Positions 21,478 through 57,640 of a stretch of 64,000 nt of DNA are shown one piece after another. Both the position numbers and the translations under genes were made by a program. Source of the DNA: Sclerodactyla briareus (lineage: Eukaryota; Echinodermata; Holothuroidea; Dendrochirotida; Sclerodactylidae); assembly GCA_026419785.1 (NCBI GenBank), contig JAODTK010005543.1, positions 1 through 64,000 on the forward strand, given 5' to 3'. The first letter of the stretch is position 1. Each line of letters begins with the position of its first letter. The notes under the pieces were generated by a model, which did not search any database, was not told the DNA's origin, and was given only the letters and a program-made list of their open reading frames with translations.

Positions 21478-21640
21478 AAAATCCAACATGCCTACTCAAC
21501 TTACCCATCTTGCAACATTTGCAGCAGCACCCTAATTTACCACCTCTAGCAACCCTGGTAAATTCCGAGGGGGCCCCAACTGGCCACACCATTCTCCTTC
21601 TGAATTTGCCAGTGCTACGAGACTACACATTCATACCTGG
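21478..21640 (+). mobile_element. Solitary DIRS-type terminal repeat (fossil)
   Basis: It matches the left terminal repeat of the element at 35650-42158 almost throughout: 'atccaac..gcctactcaacttacccat', then 'caccctaattta', 'tctagcaaccctgg', 'ctggccac' and 'aatttgccagt'. It has no associated coding region, so it is a lone terminal repeat or the stub of a decayed copy, in the same orientation as element 1. Confidence 0.75.
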
Positions 21641-35649: not shown

Positions 35650-35792
35650 AAATCCACTACGCCGACTCCAACTTACCCATGTTGCAACTTTGCACCCTAA
35701 TTTACCTCGATCTAGCAACCCTGGCAATTTGAAGCGCCCCATCTGGCCAGCCCCTCCCTCCTTCTAAATTTGCCAGTCTAACGCGACTAAAA
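35650..35792 (+). repeat. Left inverted terminal repeat of DIRS element 1
   Basis: The sequence 'aaatccactacgccgactcc', then 'aacttacccat', 'gcaccctaattta', 'tctagcaaccctggc' and 'cctccctccttc' is the reverse complement of the right end at 41994-42158. The solitary repeat at 21478-21640 matches it. The outermost part is also found, complemented, in the internal complementary region. Confidence 0.8.
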
Positions 35793-36229
35793 CATTTAGA
35801 CCCTGAAATAGCTTTTAACGTGATTTTTCTCATTCTTTATGATTTTGGAGACGATTTTGTTGGAAGTTCCCTCCGAGTGTCGTATACAGCCCTACGATAT
35901 CCCTTATGAGTGAAATTGTCGAATTTAATCGTTGTTTTGAGGCTGTGTTACGATCGTTACGTAAAGGGAGCTAGCCTAACCGCGTGTATGGCCTCTTCGC
36001 GGGCGGGGCCTCGGCGTTAGCTTCGTGAGGGATGATTCTTGGTACGCTGTACGTGTTTGTCAGCTGTAGCCGTGTTTCATGTGGCAATACAGCCTAGTGG
36101 ATGGTGGATTCCTTGTATTTTTGCATGTTGTTCTATGCATTATCGTATTAATCGTATCCATGCATCCTTGTTTTGTATACGCATTTTCGTATTGGTGTTG
36201 TACCCCATGCTGTATGCTCATATTTCTAT

Positions 36230-36545
36230 TTGATTCGATAACTAGGATTGGTTATTTTTCCTTTTCCTATCGATTAGAGTGAACATCGCTCTTGGTTGAG
36301 TGTGTTGTGAGCCATTTTGATCGGAAATTGGAGAAATTTGTGGGAATTTTGTGGATTTCTGATCGGAAAATTGGGTACGCTGTTTTGCTCATATTCTCTT
36401 TTCGCCCAATAACTAAGTTTCATATTTTTGTATTGATCGAGCGAACGTCGCTCGTCGGGTTGGAGCGCTGGTTTTGACATTTTGTCAGAAAATTTGTGTA
36501 GTTTCTTGATTGGTAACTTGTGGGGGATTGGTGGGAATTGCGTAG
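36230..36545 (+). repeat. Tandem duplication in the leader of DIRS element 1
   Basis: Two imperfect copies of a block of about 170 bp: 'gataactaggattgg..atcgattagagtgaac' with 'catcgctc', and 'caataactaagtttc..gatcgagcgaac' with 'gtcgctcg'. Each is followed by 'ttgg', 'gagc' and a 'gtgggaatt'-type block. The duplication precedes the first coding part and may hold promoter or packaging signals, but that is inference. Confidence 0.55.
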
Positions 36546-36559
36546 TGGCCGGGTTTGTT

Positions 36560-38900
36560 TCCCTTAACGTATTTTCCAGATATGTCGGACCGTGTACGAC
36601 GTGCAAGCGTTTCCGGCCGTTCACCGGTGGGATCTGCAACGCCGCGTGCCCGAGGTGCAGGAGTTGTAGCCAGGTGATCCCTGCATGATTTGGGCGAGTG
36701 TGGGACAGCACCCGGTGGGAGTTGGTGGCTACGTGGCAGGAGGCAAGGCAGGTCGATAAGCGCAGGCGGAAGGAGCGCGCGACGCAGCTGCCTGGTTAAG
36801 AAGATGGACGGGGTGGGGTACGGGGCCGGCTTCTGGGAGCCTGCCGAACCCCAGATTGGAAACCCAGGATAAGGCTCAGAGGGTTCGGGGCTGTGGATTC
36901 CAGTTTTCTCTACCCTGTTCGCCACCAGTTGGCAGGGGAGAGAAGGGGAAGAGATGTCGGTAAGATTAAGAAGCTGGCGGACGGGGGGCGGCCGACGAAC
37001 CCGATGTGATTGGAGCCCAGATTACGGTCCCAGAGGGTTCCGGGGATGTGGATCCCGTTCTTCTGACCCTGTTCCGGCCGCTCGTTGGCTGGGGAGAGAT
37101 GTTGGTTAGAAAGGCTGCCTCCGGTTCTGTCCGGAGTCTGTTCCCCAACGGCCGGAACGGAGGACCAGCGCTCCAGGAGAGCCGGGTGTGAACACGAGTT
37201 CTGTCCCCCGGCCGGGGGACGGAAGGGTTCCCGGGAAGCTAGTCCGGGGGGGCTTGACGGCCGGCGATCGCCCAGGTCCAGACCAGAAGGGCAAAGACCG
37301 GAAGGGAGGCTGAGTAAGAGCGCAAGCGGCCGGTGGGAGCCGTGCCGGGCGCAGAGCCGAGCGAGGGCTAGGCAGACCGAGGTCGGGTCCTGCAGAGGCC
37401 GGGTTCAGAGTCCGAGCCGTGATCAGACGAGCGGAGTCCAAACTGACCGGGTCAGGAACCGAGCTGAGACGGGGGCGGGCTACCCGGTGGCGGTAGCACC
37501 GTTACCGGAGCCGTAGGGACGGAGCAGTTGAGCTTTGCGAGTGGGGGCTGGAGCGGCCAGTACGGCAGGAAGAAACGCCGCAGTCCGGGGGCAACCGGGC
37601 AGTGAGGCGGCAGCAGTGTGGACGGGGGCTCCCCGCGGAGGGAGTCACCCTCCGAGAGCGCTGGGCGGGGCGACGCCGGGAGCCAGGGTCATTCGGTCGC
37701 GGTCCGGATCGCAAGCAAGAATTTTGAAGGTTTTGACTCAGGCGGAGCAAGGGGCGGCAGAGGATTGATCGGCCGGTGCTCCAAGGCCAGGAGGAGAGAG
37801 GGACGTGCGTTCTCCTTCTCCACTCTTCTAGTGTGGACTCCGGGCGGGCCACGGGGGGAGTCGAGCGCTGGGGTCCAAGTCAGAGGTCGAGCAGTTGAAA
37901 CTGCTCATGGATCGGCTGGGACCGCTAGAGCTCAGCAGCAGCCGGCGGGGCCGTCGCAGAGCAGAGAGACGGTGGGGGTTGGTTGGTTGGTAGGCAGAGC
38001 AGGCGGCGGGACCCCCCGCGGGCGGACCCCGAGTCTCGGGTTTGTATCTCCCAGGGCCAGCCAGGGGGTCGAGGAGGGGTCGGCGGAAGTCAGGCAGGAG
38101 GCAGCCCAGGAGGAAGCTAGGAGGCTGTCGGGAAGAAGAGGACTCCTCCGTTGTACGGAGGTCGACTCCTGAATCCTTTGAGCGGGCGGTGGAGGTGGGT
38201 GCTACCGGCGAGTGCTTTAGAGTATGGGGATCCACTCCGCCGCCACCTCCAGGGAGGAGTCGTCGCACCGGCAGTCCCGCATGTCCATCAGGCAATGGCT
38301 GAGCAACCTCGGACGGTGGATGCCGGTGACGCGAATGCTCGACAGGTTCGAAAGCATCGCTGCCGCGAAGCGTTGGAGGGCCTCAGGCGAAAGTACTACC
38401 GGAACCTTCCGTGGTGGAGCAGTAGGGAGTGGGGAGGACCTGTTGCAGGTGCCTACCCTTCCGGACAGGCGCCAACCGTTTGGCAGGCAACGGTGACATC
38501 GCAAGCTGGCAAAGTACCGTGATGCAGCGGTTTCTCGCGCCGAGAGGGCCCTGCAGGAGGTTCGATTCCGCAGGCAGTTAGGGCTGGTATGCGGTTTGCC
38601 TCGGCCCTGATTTTGCTGACGGAGGTGGTTTCCCGAGCATGTCAGCGAGCGAGGAGGACTCGGGGGTATCCCGCCGAGACATGGATCAGTGTTGGCTCTA
38701 GCGGGTCCCGTTTCCCGGCTGGTACTACGACCAGTTGCCAGGGCGTCGAACAGGTCGGTTCGCGCCCGGCGGGAAATAGCTCTTGAAGCTGTTGGGACTT
38801 TCGGCGGCCCCTCGTTGCGGGCGGGCCTTGCCCTCCCGGGTCCCGATCTGTTCGGGGGGAGGTTCACGGAGACCCTCAGCTAAGAGGCAGAGGAACACAA
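36560..38900 (+). pseudogene. Gag-like first coding region of DIRS element 1 (fossil)
   Basis: This GC-rich coding-like stretch lies between the leader and the RT. Near its start a cysteine-rich segment reads CTTCKRF, then CNAACPRCRSC (about 36595-36670), a compact zinc-knuckle-like pattern. The rest is rich in Arg, Gly, Ser and Pro with no recognised domain. Position and composition fit a DIRS ORF1/Gag. It is broken. Confidence 0.5.
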
Positions 38901-39289
38901 GTCCATGAAGGAGGTCAGTCAGGAGTTCCCCTCTGCCCGACATCATCGAGAGGCCGTACCTCTGGTTGCGCCCGCCGTTCCCGCGTGGCGGCGCAGTACG
39001 AGGGGCGCGACGGCTGGGCAAAGTCCCCAGGGGTTCGCCGTATTCGCGGCCTGCTCGGGGCCACGTGGTAGCCGGGGACAACGGCCGTTTGCGGCCCCCC
39101 GCGCGGAACTGGCATCGTGCTCCCGGCCCTAGGGATGCCCACCCCACCAGGTGTGCCCCCACCGGTGGGGGAGAGGACTGGAAGAGTTGTGGGAGTTGTC
39201 GCAGCTGGACCGCAGGTCCGTGGGTGGGTGTTGCGAAACGGTCAGGGAGGGGTATCGGATCGAGTTCACGGACGGCAACGCCGGTAAAC

Positions 39290-40000
39290 ATCGTCCTAAA
39301 CCCACCGACACGCCCGCGGATGCGGGTTAGCGCGAGGCGCTGGAACTGGGAAATGGGCCCCCTCCTGGAAAAGGGAGCCATCGAGGTGGTGCCGAGGCAA
39401 ACCGGGACGCCGCTTGTTCAGATCCTGCTTCTTCTTGGACCACGAAAGCCCGACAAAGGCGGCCGAAACCCTCATTCTAAAGCCGCTGAACAAGCGGGAT
39501 GTCAGGCCGAAAGCCGTTTCGAAAATGGAAACGATCCAAGGCAATTGGCCCGTTGCTGAAAAACGGGCATGTGGGCGGCAACGTCCATCGACCCTGCGGG
39601 ACGGCTTTCTGCAAGTTCCGATCTGGACGGCCCACCGCGATTACCTCGCGGTTCGCCATACCAGGGGTCACTACGTTTCGGTTGCCTAATTTGGTCTGTC
39701 GACAGCCCCCGCGAGTTTCACCGCGTGGGTAACGCGGCAATCCTGGCGTTTGCGCGAAGAGGTAGTGATGATCTTCGCTACAGCGACATTGGCTCGTGGT
39801 GGCAGAAGTCACAAGACAGGCGGTTCGCCATACCGCCGAGTTGTTGCCCTGCCGAAGATCTCGGGTGGACTGATCAACCGCGAGAAAATCTGCTGCGACC
39901 CGAGCCCGGCGCAGCGGCATCACCTACCTCGGGTCACCCTCGACATCTGCCCGAGGTTGGGTGTTCACGATCACGGAGGCCGGCGGGCGCTCACAGGCCG
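39290..40000 (+). pseudogene. DIRS-type reverse transcriptase region of element 1 (fossil)
   Basis: The motif blocks characteristic of DIRS/Ngaro RT appear in order on the plus strand. LLEKGAIEVV is near 39365. LKPLNK, followed by the RPK and METIQ positions, is near 39475-39540. A DGFLQVPI-type block, where the family has DAYLHVPI, is near 39600. Then follows STAP-REF-type sequence near 39700. These are close to the family wording in fish and echinoderm DIRS elements. The reading frame is not continuous. Confidence 0.8.
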
Positions 40001-40239
40001 GCGGTTGGCGAATCCTGGTCGACCGTTTTCCACAAGCAAGAGAAGTGGGCTGGGCTGTTGGGCCATGATGGCAGCTTGGTCGATTGCTTATTTGTGTCAG
40101 ATGCGGATGCGCCCGCCATGCAGCTGTACTGCAGGCGCGCTACAGCCAGTCCAGGACCAGAGGGGCTCCATTGTTGATCGCGGTCCACGGGAAACTCAGA
40201 CACTTCTGCATGGTGGACGAGCCGTTGCATGTGGCGAAA

Positions 40240-40600
40240 GGGCGGCCTTTCGCACTCTCCAAGCCGACGGCGACCACTTTCACCGATGCGTCGCATACGG
40301 GTTGGGGGGACAACTGGGCGACCAGATAGCGTCAGGCAGTGGTCCCGACGAGCTGTCGTGGCCCATCAACCTCCTCCGAGACAGAGGCTTTGATTTTCGC
40401 GCCATTTCCCAGGTGCGCTACAGTGGGTGATCATGCAGTGACCGTTCGCTCCGACAGACGCGCCACGGTCACCTACAATCAATCGGGAGGGGGGCCCGAA
40501 GTCGCATTTCGCTGACAGACAGGACGTGAGGCTTCTCTCCTGTAACGACGACCCGCAATCTCTCTCCGAGCGTCCCACCTGGCAAGGGTGGACAACATGC
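40240..40600 (+). pseudogene. RNase H region of DIRS element 1 (fossil)
   Basis: FTDASHTGWGDNWA is at about 40278-40320 (the family has TDAS..GWGA.W), then an INLLRD-type segment near 40365. DHAVTVRSD follows near 40430 (the family has VTVRSDN). ASHLARVDNMLAD is near 40570-40605 (the family has .HL.GV.NV.AD.LSR). Order and spacing match the RNase H domain that follows RT in DIRS elements. Confidence 0.8.
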
Positions 40601-41790
40601 TAGCGGACCGCTCTGTCCAGGTTTGTACAACACCAGGGTCCCTAGCACAGAATGGGCAAACCAGCTCTTCCAGATTTTCGGGACCCGTCGATAGACCGGT
40701 TAGCGACGGCAGACTGCACGCACTGCTGACCTTCTACTCAAGGCGGTTTCACCCGCAGGCGTGGAAGGTAGACGTTCAGTAATTCCACTTTGGGCAGGAG
40801 GCTACACGTGTACCTTTTCCTTTCCGCCGTGGGCCAGATCAGAGTCGGGTTTTGTCCCTGCCAGGGAATCGACACGGACATCTGTTGGTCGCATCCGTGT
40901 TGGCGATGCAGCCTTGTTCCCACTGCTTCTGCGAGCTATGATCGACCTTCCGCTGCGACCTCCCGGCCCATAGTCGTCCTCTTCAGAGGGGCGGGCCAGT
41001 CTGGTATCACTCTGCGACAGTCTTAGTCTTTCTGCCTGGAATTATCATGTGCAATCTGCAGGCGAGGGCGTTCCGGACGGGCTGCGAGCTTGCAGCAGCG
41101 TCCGCGCAGGGACTCCACGGTTGCTCCTTACGACCACCTGCAGGTTCTAATTCAAGCCTGGGCCAGGACCCGATTGTGATCCGTGATGCATCTGTGAGTC
41201 AAGTCTGTACTTCCCTGACCTCCCTCTATCCGGGGGACTTGTTTTTGGTAGCGGCGGCCTCGCGGCGCGCCGCAGCGTTTGCAGGCCTTTAACGACGAAG
41301 CCGGGTTATCTCTGTTTCGACACGGCGGAGTTCGCATTGTTGCCGTGACCCCTCAGTTCCTGGCAAGAATCAATCGCCGTCGTTCGCGCCGGAGGAGATC
41401 TTCCTCACCTGCGATTAGTTTGTTGTCCTCAGTCGGAGAGCAAACGATGGTGCTGTGTGGGCACTTAAGTGGTGTTTAGAGCGAACGCGCACAGTGCGGC
41501 GGCACAAACACCTTTCCTGCTGCCACAGGCACCACACACTCCCGCTTCGAGAAACACCATCTCCCGCTGGATCATGAGAGTCTCATCGAACCGCACTCCG
41601 GAGAATGAACGGGTCAGGGCGCACAATGTACTGGACAGTCCCATCGAGACGTGGTTTGCGGGCGTCCCTCCTCCAAGACATTATGAGGCGTCCGCATGGA
41701 GACCCGACTTAATTCGTCGCTGTCTATTGCGGACACGGCAGACGGTGCTTTCGGACGGGCGGCCTTGGGCCAGACATGAGTCGTGATGAG
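40600..41790 (+). pseudogene. Connector and tyrosine recombinase region of DIRS element 1 (fossil)
   Basis: After RNase H comes a segment with FYSRRFHPQAWKVD, the RT/YR connector typical of the family. The recombinase C-terminal half is recognisable at about 41545-41725: TISRWI, then VRAHNV (the family has vRAHdVR with the catalytic Arg-His pair), FAGVP and ASAWR (the family has A.WRS). These are the conserved YR boxes of DIRS elements. The region is broken, and I do not claim an active catalytic site. Confidence 0.75.
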
Positions 41791-41837
41791 ACTTCCTGCC
41801 TTCCGGGGCCCTGCTACATCTGTGCAACTGTTTGCAA

Positions 41838-41927
41838 TTATGGGTAAGTTTTGAGTATGGCGTAGTGGATTTCCCAAAATGGTTAAAGTTTGTGAATCCG
41901 CGAGCTACGAATACTTACCACATTGCA
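41838..41927 (+). repeat. Internal complementary region of DIRS element 1
   Basis: The first half, 'atgggtaagtt..gag', 'tatggcgtagtggattt', is the complement of the extreme left end at 35650-35690. The second half, 'gtgaatccgcgagctac', 'gaatacttaccacattgc', is the complement of the right outer end near 42085-42150. The two outer ends are thus joined in complement, as expected of the DIRS1 internal complementary region used to close the circular intermediate. Confidence 0.8.
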
Positions 41928-41993
41928 AGGTCCCACCCATCCTTCCCCACATCATCAATCACAACCTTCGGTGGGCCCATCCCGTAATTGGCT

Positions 41994-42158
41994 GTGAGTC
42001 GCTTCGACTGAAATTTCAAGGAGGGATGGGGTGGCCAGGTGGGTCCCTCCAAATGATTTGCCAGGGTTCTAGATGTGGGTGAATTAGGGTGCAATGTGGC
42101 ATATGGGTAAGTATTCGTAGCCGCAAGATCATTAACAAACCCCTACCTTTTTGTGGGA
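41994..42158 (+). repeat. Right inverted terminal repeat of DIRS element 1
   Basis: The reverse complement of the left repeat: 'gggatggggtggccaggtgg', 'tttgccagggttctagatg', 'gaattagggtgcaatgtgg', 'gggtaagtattcgtagccgc'. It extends past the part shared with the left repeat by about 40 bp, and that extension is complemented in the internal complementary region. Confidence 0.8.
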
Positions 42159-42475
42159 ACAACTTATTCTTACTTACGCATGAACAACCGACTTCTGATG
42201 CCAGCCATCTGTATCTCTGAAGGAAATTTGGTCATGAACTTTCTTGAAAATTAATATCTAGGTATTCGACCATTAGGTAATTTCCTTTCCTTCCTCCTCC
42301 TAATTGTTTCTGATCTAGTATTGGCGGCTACCATAACTTTGCACATTAAAAGGCAACATTCAGGTTAAGTAATGGCTATTGATTGAAGATGGCTTGTACA
42401 TTCTGCACTTCTTGCAAATTTTTAGCTCACCACAGCCATATGGCTGGATGGCTAGCGCTATTATGATCATGCACG

Positions 42476-51209: not shown

Positions 51210-51527
51210 TAATTTGCTTCTTGGATTTTCAGGAAACATTTTAATTGCGGTCCACCATTGGTTCCGAGATTTCAAAAATAGAAAAGGGTCACTGGAAGTG
51301 GAGTATGTACAATTTGGCCTGATTCAGGCCCATTTTAGTCAATTTCTGTCACAATTTTATTAATCACGGGGGTGGTTAGTCAATGTGTAGAATTTGCTTC
51401 ATGTTGCAAATTTGGGAGTTAATTTGATTTTCCGGGAAACCATTTTAATTGCAGTCCCACTTGATCAGAGTTTATCAAATTAGAAAAGGGGTACTGCGAG
51501 TAAGGATGTGTATAATTAGCATAAATT
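51210..51527 (+). repeat. Tandem pair around the DIRS element 2 target
   Basis: Two loose copies about 200 bp apart: 'ttggattttcaggaaacatt', 'taattgcggtcc' and, later, 'tgattttccgggaaacc', 'taattgcagtccc'. Each is followed by 'agaaaaggg', 'actg' and 'gag'. The second runs into 'tataattagcataaatt', where DIRS element 2 begins. Confidence 0.6.
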
Positions 51528-51650
51528 ATTCAGGTATTCAACTTACCCCACCAGGACTATGCACCCACCCCAGGCCATGGTGAGCTTCTGGCAATTACAC
51601 AAAATACGGGTTGGCCACCCCATCGCCCTCTCTTTTTACCATGCTTTCTG
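51528..51650 (+). repeat. Left inverted terminal repeat of DIRS element 2
   Basis: 'attcaacttaccccacca', then 'ctatgcacccaccccaggcc', 'tctggcaattacacaaaa' and 'ggttggccaccccatcgcc' form the reverse complement of 56811-56935. The outermost 'caggtattcaacttacccc' is complemented at 56645-56660. Confidence 0.8.
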
Positions 51651-52499
51651 CTATAACGTTGAGTGTTTTGGCTCTGAAATTTTGCCTAACAAGGACGTCG
51701 GTTCACCTCTTTTTAAGGCTTATTCATCTTGCATCGATCTTTACCAGCTTTCGAGTGTTTCTACTACCTTTTCGTCGAGTATCCTTTCGGTTTGCGTATG
51801 TTGTGAAAGGGTTTTGCTCTCTCTCTTCCGTTGTTCGCTGCGCGGCATAGCCTAGTTCTCCCGTTCTGTAGTGTTTTGAACGCTGTGCAGCTAGCCTAAC
51901 AATTCCGCTGTATGGGCCTAGCGCTTACACTGCGTCTTTCTCCCGGCTGTTGTTTCGGGGTTGTCACGAGGCCCTCTTCCCCCCCCCCCTCCCTCCCTGT
52001 CCCCCCTGTCGCCCCTTGGGTTCCGTCCCCTCCCTTTCCCCGGGGTTGGGATTTTCTGTTAGGGCCTACACTTCGTTGGCCCAGCAGCGAATGGCCTGCG
52101 CAGAGAGACGAGCCTTTACGCTAAAAGGTTTCCGCTCGGGGGAATGTGAATTATTCCCTGGTGGGGACTCGCGGCCAGCATTGTGGCTGCTGTTCACGTA
52201 GTTTTAGGGCAGTTGGTTATGTAGCTCAAAATTGCTAGTAGCAGCTAGTCGGACCGTGGGATTCTCCCATGAATATTTCTCACCACGGCCCTTTGTTGGG
52301 TTCAAGCATTGACGTAGCTTAGCGACCGTATGTACCGGGTGGTCGGTAAGCCGTAAGTTAATTACTGCGGTTGTCAGGTGGATCGGAGACTGGATACCGT
52401 AGCCACGGTGGCTTTGTAAGCCGTCCGTTAATTAACGCGGTTGCAGGAGGTCTGAGCTTGCTGATATACGGCTGCAGCCGTCCCGTTGGGTTATTTCTC

Positions 52500-55400
52500 C
52501 CGCCTGTTGCGTCAGCTGGGGCTAATTGACTTAGCGGGTCCACAGCTATGACCAAGGTGTTACGTGCCAGCGGTTCACGTCCGTTCAAACGCTGGGACGC
52601 CATCAGGAGTGTCCGAGAGTGGTCCTGTTACGACCCACAAAGATTGTGCTGTCTGCGAAGGTTCCGTGGGCGACGTCACGGTTCACCGGGATTGCTGGTC
52701 CGGCCTGCACGGAGAAGGAGGGGAGCGCTGCGCCACGGCTGGTTCGGCGGGACTCTGGGCGAAGAAGACGAAATAAAGAGCGCAAGTGCCCTCTGTCCAG
52801 GTCGAAGAGGAGCCTGGAGCCCCGGTGAGGACCAGGTCATGGTCCCGGTGCGGCCCTCACGGTCACAGCTATAAGGCCCCCAGGGTGGACCACCTCCGTG
52901 TAGCCCTACGTCTGCATGATGCCGGCCACTATGACGGGCGGTAAGACACAGAAGAAACGGCTCTTCGCCGTCCCGGTGTAACTGGGCACGGCTCGGCCGG
53001 CGTGGCCCGCGGCGGCAGACGCCCGCCACAACCTCTTCCGAAAGCCGGGAGAGCCGTCATCGGCTCCGGTGGCCCGTGCCCCGGCCGGGGGCACTGACCA
53101 CGGTGCGGCCACCCGGGCGGGTGGGCCGGATGCCACACCCATCCCGGTCCGCAACTTGGCCACAGCCGTCGGCTTCCGTGGTCAGCGTAGAAAGAGAGCG
53201 AGCCGGTTTCCGGGAGCCGTGGGTGACTCCGCTGGGGGGTCCCGTGGCATCGGACCGGCTAGGCGTGGAGCAGCACCGTGGTACAGTTGCCACACGGTTC
53301 AGGGCCGGACAGTCGGCCTAGCCCGTGGAGGGACGGCCAGGCCGCGGGGGTCAGCCGCGAGTGAGCTGGTCGGATGGGGGTGCGGGAGTTACAATCATCC
53401 TCCCAGGCGACTAAACCGAGCTGGAGCCAGCCCCTAACCAGCTTTTGGTTGCGGCACCGCCGCAGCCTCGGATGTCGGTTACCGGAACAGTTATGGGTCT
53501 TCTGGGGACCGCTGGTGGGGGCAGGCGTTCCGGGCGGACGCCACCGCCAGTGGGAGGAAGCGGCGTAGGGCGCAGGTCCTTCCGATTCGAGCGGTGTACG
53601 CGTCTCATCGGAGAGGCAGTCGCCGCGGACCTCAGACAGGATGGCCAAGACTACTCCTGGAACCAGTCAGGGCGCTTTCTTGGGCACAGTTCCAACAGCA
53701 GAAGCCGCCACCAAAGTCCCAAGCCGCAGGGCCACACAGCCAGTCCAGTCACAATCCAGCCGCAGCAAGGCCCTGGGCAGCACGTCCCAGCAGCCGGCTT
53801 TCCACAGCGCATTCGAGTGCGGGCCCCTCCGGGGTAAGCCGCAGCCTTCTTGGTATCGGGCTTCACTCCGACCCCACAGCGAGGGGGGACGCAGTGGAGG
53901 AGGACGCCACTTTTGCGGGGCACGGAGATCCCTCACGACGCTTTCAGAGCGCGGCCGTGGAGTGATTCGTAGGGTCTGGAGTTCGACCCTTCCCTAGCAG
54001 CAGCATGCCTGAGAAAGCAGCGGCAAGAAGCAGCAGCAGCAGCAGCGGCGCCATTCCCACCTGTCCCTCAGTGCGAGCCCCCGCGGTACAGCTCCGGCTG
54101 ACAGTCGCCGCGGAGGCAGTCGACTGGTGTGAGGCTGTCGACGGGTGTGAGGCGCTGGAAGGCGGCGCCGAAAGAGCTCGTGGTACGCCGCTTCAGACTC
54201 TGACTTTCAAGAGTTGTTCGCGGGATTCCCGACTCCCGGCGCAAGCCAGGGACCGGTTGGGAGCTGAGGGGGGCCATCACGGCCAAGGGCTCTTATACCG
54301 ACCCGGCGACTGCGCGTCTGGAAAACGTCCGCCGGGAGCGTGGATGGTGCCGCGCGAGCGGGCCTGCGGCGGCCTCCGCGGGCCTCTGTCGCTGACCCGA
54401 AGTTTGGTGAAGTCCTTTCCGGGAGGTCGCATCGGCAGGGGTCGCCTGGCAGGACACCGCGAGAGTCAGGGCCACTTTTGGGACCTCTCTCGCGGCTACT
54501 GTTTGGATCAGTTACCAGAAACTTCCGTCCACGCGACGTCGCTCCGACGCGGGCTGGCATTGGATGCCGGTTGCGTGGCATCGGAGACATGAAGGAACAC
54601 ACTTCGGGAAGCTGCCTGCTCTCTCGGGTCGGACCTCTTCGCTGGGAGGTACGACGGAGACTCTACGGGGGGAGGAAGGAAGTGAAGCGGTCGCCGTGGA
54701 GGCGGAGGGGGGAGAAGGCCGTATCACGAGACGCTGCGCCGCACAGCGAAGTAGCGCACGCAGTAGGCGGCCAGTGCAGACAGGCCATGCGAGCGGCTGC
54801 GGCCAGCGCCCCAAGCCATGTGGTTCATGCGTGCCCGATCGTGCGTTGACGCGCAGGCAGCGAGCAGCATCGTGAGACGCCAGCGCAGATCGCGCGCGGC
54901 GGGATCCTACTGTCCAAAGTCCGCGGGCGGTTCGTCTCGCGAGGCTATCGGCTCGGTGCGGGAAGGGCCAAGCAACGCAGCCAGCGCCTAGGGAGGCCAG
55001 CCACCCCACCGGCAGGCCGCCGGTGGGGGGAGGTCGATTACGCATTTAAACGAAGACGGGGAGCCAGAGCGACCTCCGGGGCACGTGGGGTAGTATGGAG
55101 GCGTGGTATGCCTCTGAAGAAACTAACCCCCGGTGTCATATCTGGTAGGGTCTCTCCTTCGTCCTTTTGTTCTCCCAGGCCGCGCCTCCTTCCTTCCTCT
55201 CTTTTCCGCGCTATGTGCGTAGTGTGGCCTACCGCACCCATCGCGTTCACCCTCCGATTCCTGCCGCTTACTGCGCTCCTGCTCCACGCAGATCCGCCTT
55301 GGTGCCCAGAGCCGTGAACCACCAATGCGCGACGCACTAGCAGTATAACGCAGACTTGGCATTATGCTTTCCTCGAGACGGACGCAGCAACGAGAGCGAG

Positions 55401-55850
55401 CTCTCGATTTGTCCGGTGCCATCGGAGCGTTGTTCCGATCCCGGCTTGTCTTCTGGCCCCGAGACGTACCAGCAAGAATCGTTGATGAAGCCCCATGTCT
55501 CCACCTCCGGCCCTCACAAGCGCTCGTACGGCCGAGACGTGTTCACGGCATGGCAGGTCCTGGGCGCGGAGCAGTATCGAGTCTCTTCAGCGAGGCGTTT
55601 CGAGGATGTCTATCGGTTTACCATGCGCCGACAGTCCTCATGCGTGCACATCATGGACGATCCAGCCAGTGCGAACACCGGCGCCTGCAGTAGCTGTCCG
55701 CTAACGGTGGCCGCGACACCAGTTCGTGTGGGCTTTTCTTCCCAGTGTTTTGGCAATCTTGACGGTCCCCAGCCGCAACGTGCTGCTCCGCAGCGCTGTG
55801 ACACCCCGCGCCAATAGTCTCGCCTTTCGCACGGCTTCCTGCTGCCCGCA
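52500..55850 (+). pseudogene. Unassigned coding-like body of DIRS element 2 (fossil)
   Basis: The region is strongly GC-rich and CpG-rich, with many overlapping open stretches in several frames and both strands, as expected of GC-rich DNA. Translations are Arg-, Gly-, Pro- and Ala-rich, resembling a DIRS Gag-like region. I could not find RT or RNase H motifs of the kind seen in element 1. Poly-serine (about 54030-54050) and other low-complexity runs are present. Confidence 0.4.
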
Positions 55851-55899
55851 GGCAAGTGTGACGATCCGTATGCTCTACAATCGTAGCGTTTTTTTTTTT

Positions 55900-56470
55900 T
55901 TTTTTGGTGTTCTGCAGGGCCGACTTTCCCTCACTTGATCAGCCCTGTCCCTAGGTCATGCGCTCGCATTGCGAGACAAGAGGCGAGGCGACGCGATCGC
56001 ACGCACACCTCTCAGTGTTATCGCTCTTTGGAGCGCCTGGCGGCTTGGTCTGATCCATTGGGAAAAAGTCGGCACCTTGAGGTCGCCCCGCCGGAGTAAG
56101 ACAAGATGTAGTCGTCTTCTACTTGGCGAGCGGCACATTCATTAGACTCTCCGCCGCCTCGGCGTTTTTGCACACCCACAACGGAGCGGCGGCCAGAGTG
56201 TGGCAGAAGAGGCCAGACAGAGATGCGTGCTGCATGCCACTGTCATGTCAGCGGACCACACCCTCTCCCCGTTGGTCCGGGACCTCATCCTTTTTTGCCG
56301 CATCGCTCGACCCAAGGTGAAGTCGCCCGGGCCCACGATGTGAGGGGGCAGGCCTCCTCGCGGGCTTGGTTCCGGGGTCCCATTAGAGGACATCATGAAG
56401 CGGCGCTTGAAAAAAACCCGTCGACCTTCGTCAGCCGATACCTCACTGGACCCGTTTCTTCAGGAGGCTG
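55900..56470 (+). pseudogene. Tyrosine recombinase region of DIRS element 2 (fossil)
   Basis: VARAHDVRGQASSRAWFRG at about 56310-56370 matches the DIRS/Ngaro YR box with the Arg-x-His-x-x-Arg catalytic signature. KNPSTFVSRYLTGP at about 56410-56455 matches the box in which the family has W....TF...YL.D. These are the C-terminal catalytic boxes; the preceding part is less clear. It is broken. Confidence 0.75.
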
Positions 56471-56641
56471 CCTTGCCAGGGGACGGTCCTGGTCAGCCTG
56501 TCGCTCCTCCTCCGACGGCCCCTCCTCCAGCGGTTGCTCCGCCAGTTCTCGTCCTCCTCCACGACCGGCCACCCATCAGCTCCTCATTGTGATGGTTCTC
56601 AACCCGCCTCCGTTTCCCGTTGCTAGGGTGGTTGCATCATT

Positions 56642-56730
56642 CCATGTGGGGTAAGTTGAATACATGAACTAGATTCTCCAAAACAGAAGGGTTTGGGAAT
56701 CTGTGAATTATGAATACTTACCACACATGG
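56642..56730 (+). repeat. Internal complementary region of DIRS element 2
   Basis: 'ggggtaagttgaatac' complements the extreme left end (51533-51550). It is followed directly by 'attctccaaaac', 'gggtttgggaatctgtga', 'atgaatacttacc', which complement the extreme right end (56905-56966). As in element 1, the two outer ends are joined in complement. Confidence 0.85.
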
Positions 56731-56810
56731 GACGTTCCCGCACTTCCTTCCCCGCTTCCGCGCCATCACTAGGCGCACTTTTCGAGCTCCACGCCTCTCC
56801 GGTGTCTGTC

Positions 56811-56966
56811 GCTTCAAGCTGGCAAAAAGAGGAAGGGCGATGGGGGTGGCCCAACCCGGATTTGTGTAATTGCCCAGAGCTCAACAGGCATTGGGGTGGG
56901 TGCGTAGTCACCATGTGGGGTAAGTATTCATAGTTCACAGATTCCCAAACCCGTTCGTTTTGGAGA
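56811..56966 (+). repeat. Right inverted terminal repeat of DIRS element 2
   Basis: Its inner part is the reverse complement of the left repeat ('gatgggggtggccc', 'tgtgtaattgcccagagc', 'ggggtgggtgcgtag'). Its outer part ('ggggtaagtattcatagttc', 'acagattcccaaaccc', 'gttttggag') is matched in complement by the internal complementary region, forming a potential hairpin with stems of about 55 bp across 56676-56966. Confidence 0.85.
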
Positions 56967-57640
56967 ATTTAGGCAATTTCAGTCACTTTTCATTTGAGAT
57001 TTCTCCACCTTACAAAAAAATGGCCAAAAAAAATGGTGTTCATGGTGGTGGGGACATGGGTGTTTCGGGGGTGGGCTTAATAGGGGTGTCAGACAGCCTG
57101 TGCCCATGTCAGGCATGGTTTGGTGGGTGATGACAAGGGCACAGCATGGTCTGTGACATGGTTAGAGCCCCACTCCTGACATGCACCCATGTCATTATTA
57201 GTACTGACGGGGTCAAAACCATTGCAAAGTCAACCATGGCCAACCAGGTTTCTATTGAAATTATGGAATGGGCAGGTCTGTGACAGGAGTCTATGACATG
57301 CACTGACATGGTTGAAAACTTTACGATGGGGGAGCCGCCTAGTCTGGCCCTGCTCAACACTGCCTTGACCATGTTAGACTGGGATACAAAAAACAAACCC
57401 TTTTTTTTGACAATCTTGGTTGACAACCATGTCAGAAGGTGTATGGCATGGTGTTCATGGTTTGATCACCCTTGTTTCACCCTGATCAAGGTGAACAAAC
57501 CCTGTCTTTGCTGTGACGCCCCTGGCGACACCCATGTTTTCGTCAGATTTTTTTGTGAAGGGCAGTACTCCTTTAATAGACTAATATATGGTCAACAACC
57601 CGTCTTTATGAATTTGAGCCATTCCTGTTAAATGCGAATA
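56967..57640. other. Flank with CATGG-rich words
   Basis: It begins with 'tttaggcaatttcagtcac', the right half of the repeat split by element 2. 57040-57320 has many 'catgg' / 'ccatg' words, in both orientations, without a clear unit. The open frame at 57293-57631 has no recognised domain. Confidence 0.45.

What the first reader, a model, noticed from the sequence alone, without database searches (positions are those of the whole stretch)
35650..42158. Nearly complete DIRS architecture with a circle-junction-type internal complementary region
Seen: inverted terminal repeats at 35650-35792 and 41994-42158, and a 90-bp block at 41838-41927 whose halves complement the two outermost ends. RT, RNase H and YR boxes lie between them. 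Known: DIRS1-group elements carry an internal complementary region thought to template joining of the ends in a circular intermediate. Inferred: this lineage uses the same mechanism. The copy is broken and serves as a fossil example of the arrangement in an animal.
Basis: partly seen in the sequence, partly recalled or inferred. Interest (0 to 1): 0.75.

Follow-up and report, generated by a model that had tools for sequence, protein, structure and literature searches.

The report
Decayed DIRS retrotransposon with circle-junction template
This is the broken remnant of a known kind of mobile DNA, a DIRS retrotransposon, in an animal genome; it keeps inverted ends and an internal block complementary to both ends, as expected for this kind, so it is a good textbook example and not a new system.

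Summary
Window 35651-42160 is a decayed DIRS1-like retrotransposon. Its inverted ends align at 85% over 122 bases, and the block at about 41822-41927 is complementary to the left end in one half and to the right end in the other (0 of 500 simple shuffles reach any of the three scores). In six of eight other first-family copies the block, reverse-complemented, reads right end + AAT + left end, a circle junction. The host is an animal (Wnt exons). Eight elements, the window's included, keep coding, block and right end; four also the left end. A second family has a complete-layout copy at about 51524-56977, whose ends fit its own block far better than first-family blocks, as templating predicts. 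Reading frames are destroyed: RNase H is visible by motif, the recombinase partly, the RT motif not; RT and recombinase identity rest on relatives with sub-cut-off Pfam matches. This layout is in print for many animals: new member of a known kind. A side finding, ten short two-ended derivatives, nine without the block, may bear on whether the block is needed.

The parts
35651..42160 (+). whole decayed DIRS1-like element (6,510 bp), family 1
   Evidence: ends placed from copies; layout
35651..35792 (+). left terminus / left inverted terminal repeat, begins AAT
35793..38900 (+). leader and presumed gag region, frame-broken
   Evidence: DNA matches in copies; no long frame; gag identity is inferred from position only
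39200..39800 (+). presumed reverse transcriptase region, frame-broken; Y-x-D-D not found
   Evidence: approximate position carried over from copies L012, L014, L024, which match the RT piece of L068; DNA match of these copies to the window; motif scan
40069..40326 (+). RNase H stretch with FTDASHTGWG at 40279-40308
   Evidence: motif recalled
41220..41702 (+). remains of the tyrosine recombinase; about 240 bp lost after 41237
41822..41871 (+). left half of the internal complementary region, complementary to the left terminus; junction ATT at 41869-41871
41869..41927 (+). right half of the internal complementary region, complementary to the right terminus and its extension
41994..42112 (-). right inverted terminal repeat
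42113..42160 (+). outermost right terminus with right extension, ends AAC (AAT in 3 of 7 copies compared: L011, L012, L021)
51524..56977 (+). second, less diverged DIRS-like element of another family: left ITR about 51526-51646, internal complementary region about 56624-56740, right ITR about 56816-56972
21479..21637 (+). left-terminus remnant of family 1

Best explanation
A dead, old copy of a DIRS1-like tyrosine-recombinase retrotransposon. In the living element an RNA lacking the outermost ends would be reverse transcribed; the internal complementary block, which pairs with both termini, would supply the missing end sequence and hold the two ends together at a shared AAT, giving a circular DNA that the element's tyrosine recombinase inserts at a matching trinucleotide. 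Shown here: the ends, the block, its two-sided complementarity, its recurrence in copies and in a second family, ends and block differing together between the two families, and the loss of reading frames. Inferred from the published model: the RNA template, the templating, the circle and the recombinase step.
For: Two-sided complementarity against 500 shuffles in the window copy and in the 4 other elements where both sides could be tested (L011, L014, L024/L028, second family; 0 of 500 in each test; the weakest is L024's right side, score 37 against a shuffle maximum of 33). Reverse-complemented block with GGAATCC at the junction in 6 of 8 other first-family copies (L009, L010, L011, L012, L013, L021); GGACTCC in L014 and L024. 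The second family's right terminus scores 88 against its own block and at most 64 against 11 other blocks; its left terminus 42 against at most 21; each of 8 first-family right termini and 4 left termini has its best score against a first-family block. An ACTTACCCAT-like sequence lies in both ITRs and both halves of the block, as PMC3266345 section 10 describes. Recombinase: window 41514-41702 matches frame L062:1390-1746 at E 1.6e-10 in a search of 11 sequences; that frame matches Phage_integrase at E 0.0016, 18.7 bits against a cut-off of 27.1, and a PHROG integrase at E 8.4e-4. RT: copies L014, L012 and L024 match a frame of L068 at E 1.4e-11, 2.6e-8 and 3.9e-6 (same small search); that frame matches RVT_1 at E 0.0023, 18.1 bits against 29.6.
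Against: No RT, RNase H or recombinase family was reached by 107 single-frame pieces from the window's two elements and 7 copies. Profiles of recombinase and RNase H pieces found nothing relevant in the PDB. Y-x-D-D was intact in none of the 9 elements scanned, one of which (L013) does not reach that region. The window itself gave no RT match. Phylogenetic placement was not tested. The covariation is uneven: the second family's block outscores the damaged blocks of L021 and/or L024 for the right ends of the window, L012, L013, L014 and L021 (L021: 36 with its own block, 38 with the second family's), the second family's right end scores 46 with the window's block where the window's own right end scores 47, and the window's own pair is not the best in its row; only one second-family element was used.
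Confidence: 0.94

Rival explanations
1. A Ngaro or PAT-like tyrosine-recombinase retrotransposon, in which the ends are split direct repeats.
For: These groups also are tyrosine-recombinase retrotransposons (PMC3266345 section 3).
Against: The terminal repeats are inverted, and no direct repeat pair links the ends: the four direct families found in the interval are 21-31 nt at 71-83% identity, none of them at both ends.
Confidence: 0.03
2. A DNA transposon or foldback element with inverted repeats, the internal block being an accidental third repeat.
For: Inverted ends, and short two-ended derivatives, one of them largely palindromic, resemble DNA transposons and MITEs.
Against: The block matches both ends in two halves meeting at the end trinucleotide, in copies and in a second family with its own sequence; recombinase and RT stretches are recognisable through relatives.
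Confidence: 0.02
3. A patchwork of unrelated repeats that only looks like one element.
For: The window copy is heavily broken; its longest plus-strand frame is 246 residues.
Against: The whole order left ITR, leader, coding, block, right ITR recurs in L011, with large parts in L009, L012, L014, L021 and L024/L028.
Confidence: 0.01

Closest known systems
DIRS1-like superfamily (DIRS-1 of Dictyostelium; 28 annotated elements in PMC3266345)
   Same: Inverted termini, a right extension, two internal complementary halves overlapping on a trinucleotide that matches the element ends, RNase H motif and tyrosine recombinase remains.
   Different: 6,510 bp, slightly longer than the longest in that table (6,283 bp); no open frame over 402 residues in the 7 copies listed.
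LgDIRS2 of the limpet Lottia gigantea (table row read)
   Same: Begins AAT, ends AAT, junction ATT; a 46-base left half, close to the roughly 46-50 bases here.
   Different: Only the table row was compared, not the sequence; LgDIRS2 is 5,036 bp with a 67-base right half, here about 59.
Ngaro and PAT groups
   Same: Tyrosine-recombinase retrotransposons.
   Different: Split direct repeats there (section and passages), inverted ends plus internal complementary region here.

Membership tests
DIRS1-like | inverted terminal repeats | tested here: met
   85% over 122 aligned bases, 0 of 500 shuffles
DIRS1-like | internal complementary region matching both termini, halves meeting at the end trinucleotide | tested here: met
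   copies
DIRS1-like | right (or left) extension complementary to the internal region | tested here: met
   right terminus beyond the ITR aligns with the right half (66 aligned, 82%)
DIRS1-like | tyrosine recombinase | tested here: met
   indirect: window match to L062 at E 1.6e-10 in a small search; L062 to Phage_integrase E 0.0016, below the curated cut-off; no direct Pfam match
DIRS1-like | reverse transcriptase and RNase H of DIRS type | tested here: inconclusive
   FTDASHTGWG present, Y-x-D-D absent; RT only through copies and L068, below cut-off; no RT match of the window itself
DIRS1-like | methyltransferase domain | tested here: inconclusive
   only short recalled motifs (DLFA, AFPP) scanned: absent in the window, one or the other in some copies and the second element; no Pfam match
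DIRS1-like | RT or recombinase phylogeny inside DIRS | not testable with these tools
   no named DIRS reference proteins were at hand
DIRS1-like | no target-site duplication | not tested
   no empty site was sought
Ngaro / PAT | split direct repeats at the ends | tested here: not met
   one search finds inverted, not direct, terminal repeats

The most novel reading that the evidence does not exclude
DIRS ends can be carried by tiny block-less elements that move. The genome holds short (about 180-500 bp) two-ended derivatives with both outer termini and no coding; 9 of the 10 read lack the internal block. Most junctions differ, which fits independent deletion after insertion. But two at unlinked places (L023 on C1646, L069 on C1215) share the same inverted stretch of leader beside the right ITR, and L069 is largely palindromic. 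If that form multiplied, the block is not needed in cis, or another copy supplies it. A subfamily with longer ITRs, deleted twice, is the duller reading.
Probability: 0.17. Interest if true: 0.5.

Novelty: new member of a known kind. Interest (0 to 1): 0.23.

Why it matters
By itself it adds two DIRS families to the list. Its use is comparative: passages of PMC5633606 call the templating model for DIRS-1 experimentally not fully proven, report circular intermediates as verified, and propose a tagged element lacking the internal complementary region as a test. Three observations here bear on that from sequence alone: block and termini differ together between two families, the block persists in old copies, and block-less two-ended derivatives exist in number, mostly with unlike junctions.

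Tried and rejected
Pfam scans of single-frame pieces of the window (10 pieces), of copies (10 pieces) and of 107 pieces from the window's two elements and 7 copies gave no RT, RNase H or recombinase; one search lists 8 other families, one member each, best E 2.3e-4, which I take as chance. PDB profile searches with recombinase pieces (A2) and RNase H pieces (A3) gave no hit and one azurin at E 0.15; a recombinase frame of a relative gave none; the RT piece of L068 gave a 65-residue snake-toxin chain at E 0.007, two RT/RNase H chains at E 0.45 and 0.87 and one oxidase at 0.59, none of which I count as evidence. tblastn of a window piece against phage records: no match. Two scans of viral contigs: no relative. 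Phage_integrase sought in the whole genome gave one place, whose frame does not look like this family by eye. tblastx between the window's two elements gave 14 short weak pieces. The host could not be named; one literature search for DIRS in sponges listed no paper. Short or non-autonomous DIRS derivatives: the listings of searches showed no title or abstract start describing them; the papers listed were not read through. Read: PMC3266345 outline and abstract, sections 3 and 10, passages; passages only of PMC9210276, PMC3783388, PMC5633606; all other papers as listings. A junction-spanning query from L020 found no second place covering its junction among 51 matches (107 candidates, 40 scored).
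Full report
What is there. The window lies in a 319 Mb genome held in 3,171 contigs. Five stretches on two contigs match the Wnt family over its cut-off, while the 14 control genomes give none; Wnt being confined to animals (recalled), the host is an animal. It could not be named further. At 35651-42160 there is a 6.5 kb stretch, 51-67% G+C in 1 kb windows from 36001 to 42000, against mostly 37-46% elsewhere outside the second element, bounded by inverted repeats. The aligned arms are 85% identical over 122 bases with 12 gap columns; none of 500 simple shuffles reaches the score.

The internal block. The stretch at about 41822-41927 has two halves. The left half is complementary to the left end (45 aligned bases, 91%), the right half to the right end including an extension beyond the inverted repeat (66 aligned, 82%); 0 of 500 shuffles reach either. 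Reverse-complemented, the block of the copies reads right terminus, AAT, left terminus: GGAATCC stands at the join in 6 of 8 other first-family copies (L009, L010, L011, L012, L013, L021), GGACTCC in L014 and L024, GAAATCC in the window. This is the sequence that joining of the two ends would make, sharing one AAT. At the outer ends AAT is kept on the left in the window, L014 and L028 but not L011, and on the right in L011, L012 and L021 but not in L009, L013, L014, L024 or the window (AAC).

Copies. A search with the 90-base block gives 18 places, with the right end 42, with the left end 41; all are lower bounds, and the searches overlap. I first fetched 41 stretches, two of which are halves of one element (L024, L028). 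Eight elements of this family, the window copy included, keep coding, block and right end in order: window, L009, L011, L012, L013, L014, L021, L024/L028. The left end is also seen in 4 of these 8: window, L011, L014 (with about 1.95 kb gone between the left end and the next match) and L024/L028. In L009 and L012 it is not found in the fetched stretch; L013 and L021 are cut off by the contig or the stretch. L010 keeps the block but little of the right end. L018 and L022 carry a related block of what looks like another subfamily.

A second family in the same window. At about 51524-56977 lies another element with the same layout: left ITR about 51526-51646, block about 56624-56740, right ITR about 56816-56972. 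Its arms differ less (K2P 0.07 against 0.16). A search with its block lists 41 places, 40 of 242 candidates having been scored; some are right ends rather than blocks. Its right end scores 88 against its own block and at most 64 against 11 others, its left end 42 against at most 21; each of 8 first-family right ends and 4 left ends has its best score against a first-family block. The picture is not clean: the second family's block outscores the damaged blocks of L021 and/or L024 for five of eight first-family right ends, and its right end does as well with the window's block (46) as the window's own right end (47), the pieces being of unlike length and decay. Within the first family the window's own pair is not the best match. 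I read this as ends and block having changed together between families, as templating predicts; it does not prove the chemistry.

Coding. The longest plus-strand frame in the window element has 246 residues, the longest in 7 copies 402. Between copies of the 40028-41820 stretch there are 19-29% substitutions and 3.8-6.0 indel events per 100 bases. The window copy lacks about 240 bp after 41237, where 6 of 6 compared copies hold 216-248 bases. An intact FTDASHTGWG at 40279 marks RNase H (recalled motif); the same pattern is also intact in L009 but in none of the 7 other elements scanned, and Y-x-D-D is intact in none of 9, though L013 does not reach these regions. Direct profile searches failed. 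The link to recombinase and RT goes through better-kept relatives found with the second family's recombinase frame (25 places): L062 matches Phage_integrase at E 0.0016 and a PHROG integrase at E 8.4e-4, and window 41514-41702 matches L062 at E 1.6e-10; L068, fetched next to L063, matches RVT_1 at E 0.0023 and three copies of the first family at E 1.4e-11 to 3.9e-6. The E-values are for a search of 11 sequences, and both Pfam scores are below the curated cut-offs. The window itself gave no RT match in that test; its RT region is placed by DNA similarity to the copies.

Comparison with what is known. The published description of DIRS1-like elements (PMC3266345, sections 3 and 10 read) has inverted termini, a right extension, two internal complementary halves overlapping on a trinucleotide that matches the ends, and a short sequence shared by both ITRs and both halves. 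All are here. Its abstract reports such elements in 61 species, among unikonts from Cnidaria to Sauropsida. One listed element, LgDIRS2 of a limpet, has AAT/AAT ends and an ATT junction, as here. The finding is thus a new member of a known kind.

Short derivatives. Ten loci hold both termini within about 180-500 bases: L015, L019, L020, L023, L029, L036, L038, L041, L049 (lengths) and L069. L029 keeps the block; the other nine do not. Mapped by BLAST ends on the window, and so only roughly, right-hand breakpoints of the first nine lie at 42000-42018 in five, L020 and L036 coinciding at 42011, and left-hand ones range from about 35686 (L020 and L023) to about 35981 (L041). In L023 the left piece and the right ITR are separated by some 55 bases that are an inverted stretch of the leader. 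L069, on another contig, has a full left ITR and the same inverted leader before its right ITR (81% to L023 over 114 columns) and is self-complementary over 234 columns at 71%. L020's own junction has no second place among the 51 matches listed. Most of the ten thus look like independent deletions, perhaps helped by the inverted arms; L023 and L069 share a structure, which could be a small multiplied form or a subfamily with longer ITRs deleted twice. Three further likely pairs and 12 of 13 further left-end places were not read.

Mechanism and confidence. Shown: ends, block, recurrence, family-wise difference of ends and block, decay. Inferred from the published model: reverse transcription, end restoration on the block, circle, recombinase insertion. 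I hold DIRS membership at 0.94. Interest is 0.23, since the arrangement, though well preserved, is what the family is known for; the check moved it by 0.01 and the odds of the novel case from 0.12 to 0.17, on account of L069.

Noticed in passing
window 51524-56977: A second, less diverged DIRS-like element of another family with its own end and block arrangement, 9.4 kb downstream of the first.
   Followed up: partly
L015, L019, L020, L023, L029, L036, L038, L041, L049, L069: Ten short two-ended derivatives (about 180-500 bp) with no coding; nine lack the internal block; L023 and L069 share an inverted stretch of leader beside the right ITR.
   Followed up: partly
window 21479-21637: A stray left-terminus remnant of the first family.
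   Followed up: no
L011 (same contig, about 53 kb beyond the window element): A full-layout copy of the same family on the same contig.
   Followed up: yes
coding stretches of 7 copies, window 40028-41820: Very many small indels, 3.8-6.0 events per 100 bases with 19-29% substitutions; 45 near-private gap runs against 21 near-private insertions in the window copy, some of the longer gap runs being pieces of its one 240 bp loss.
   Followed up: partly
G000:C1216:519173-519349 (L052): The only Phage_integrase match listed for this genome by direct family search, in a 171-residue frame; a different kind of recombinase gene by eye.
   Followed up: no
window, from about 42477: Runs of short repeats (tctatctatc, then tctgtctgtc-like) just beyond the right end of the element.
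   Followed up: no
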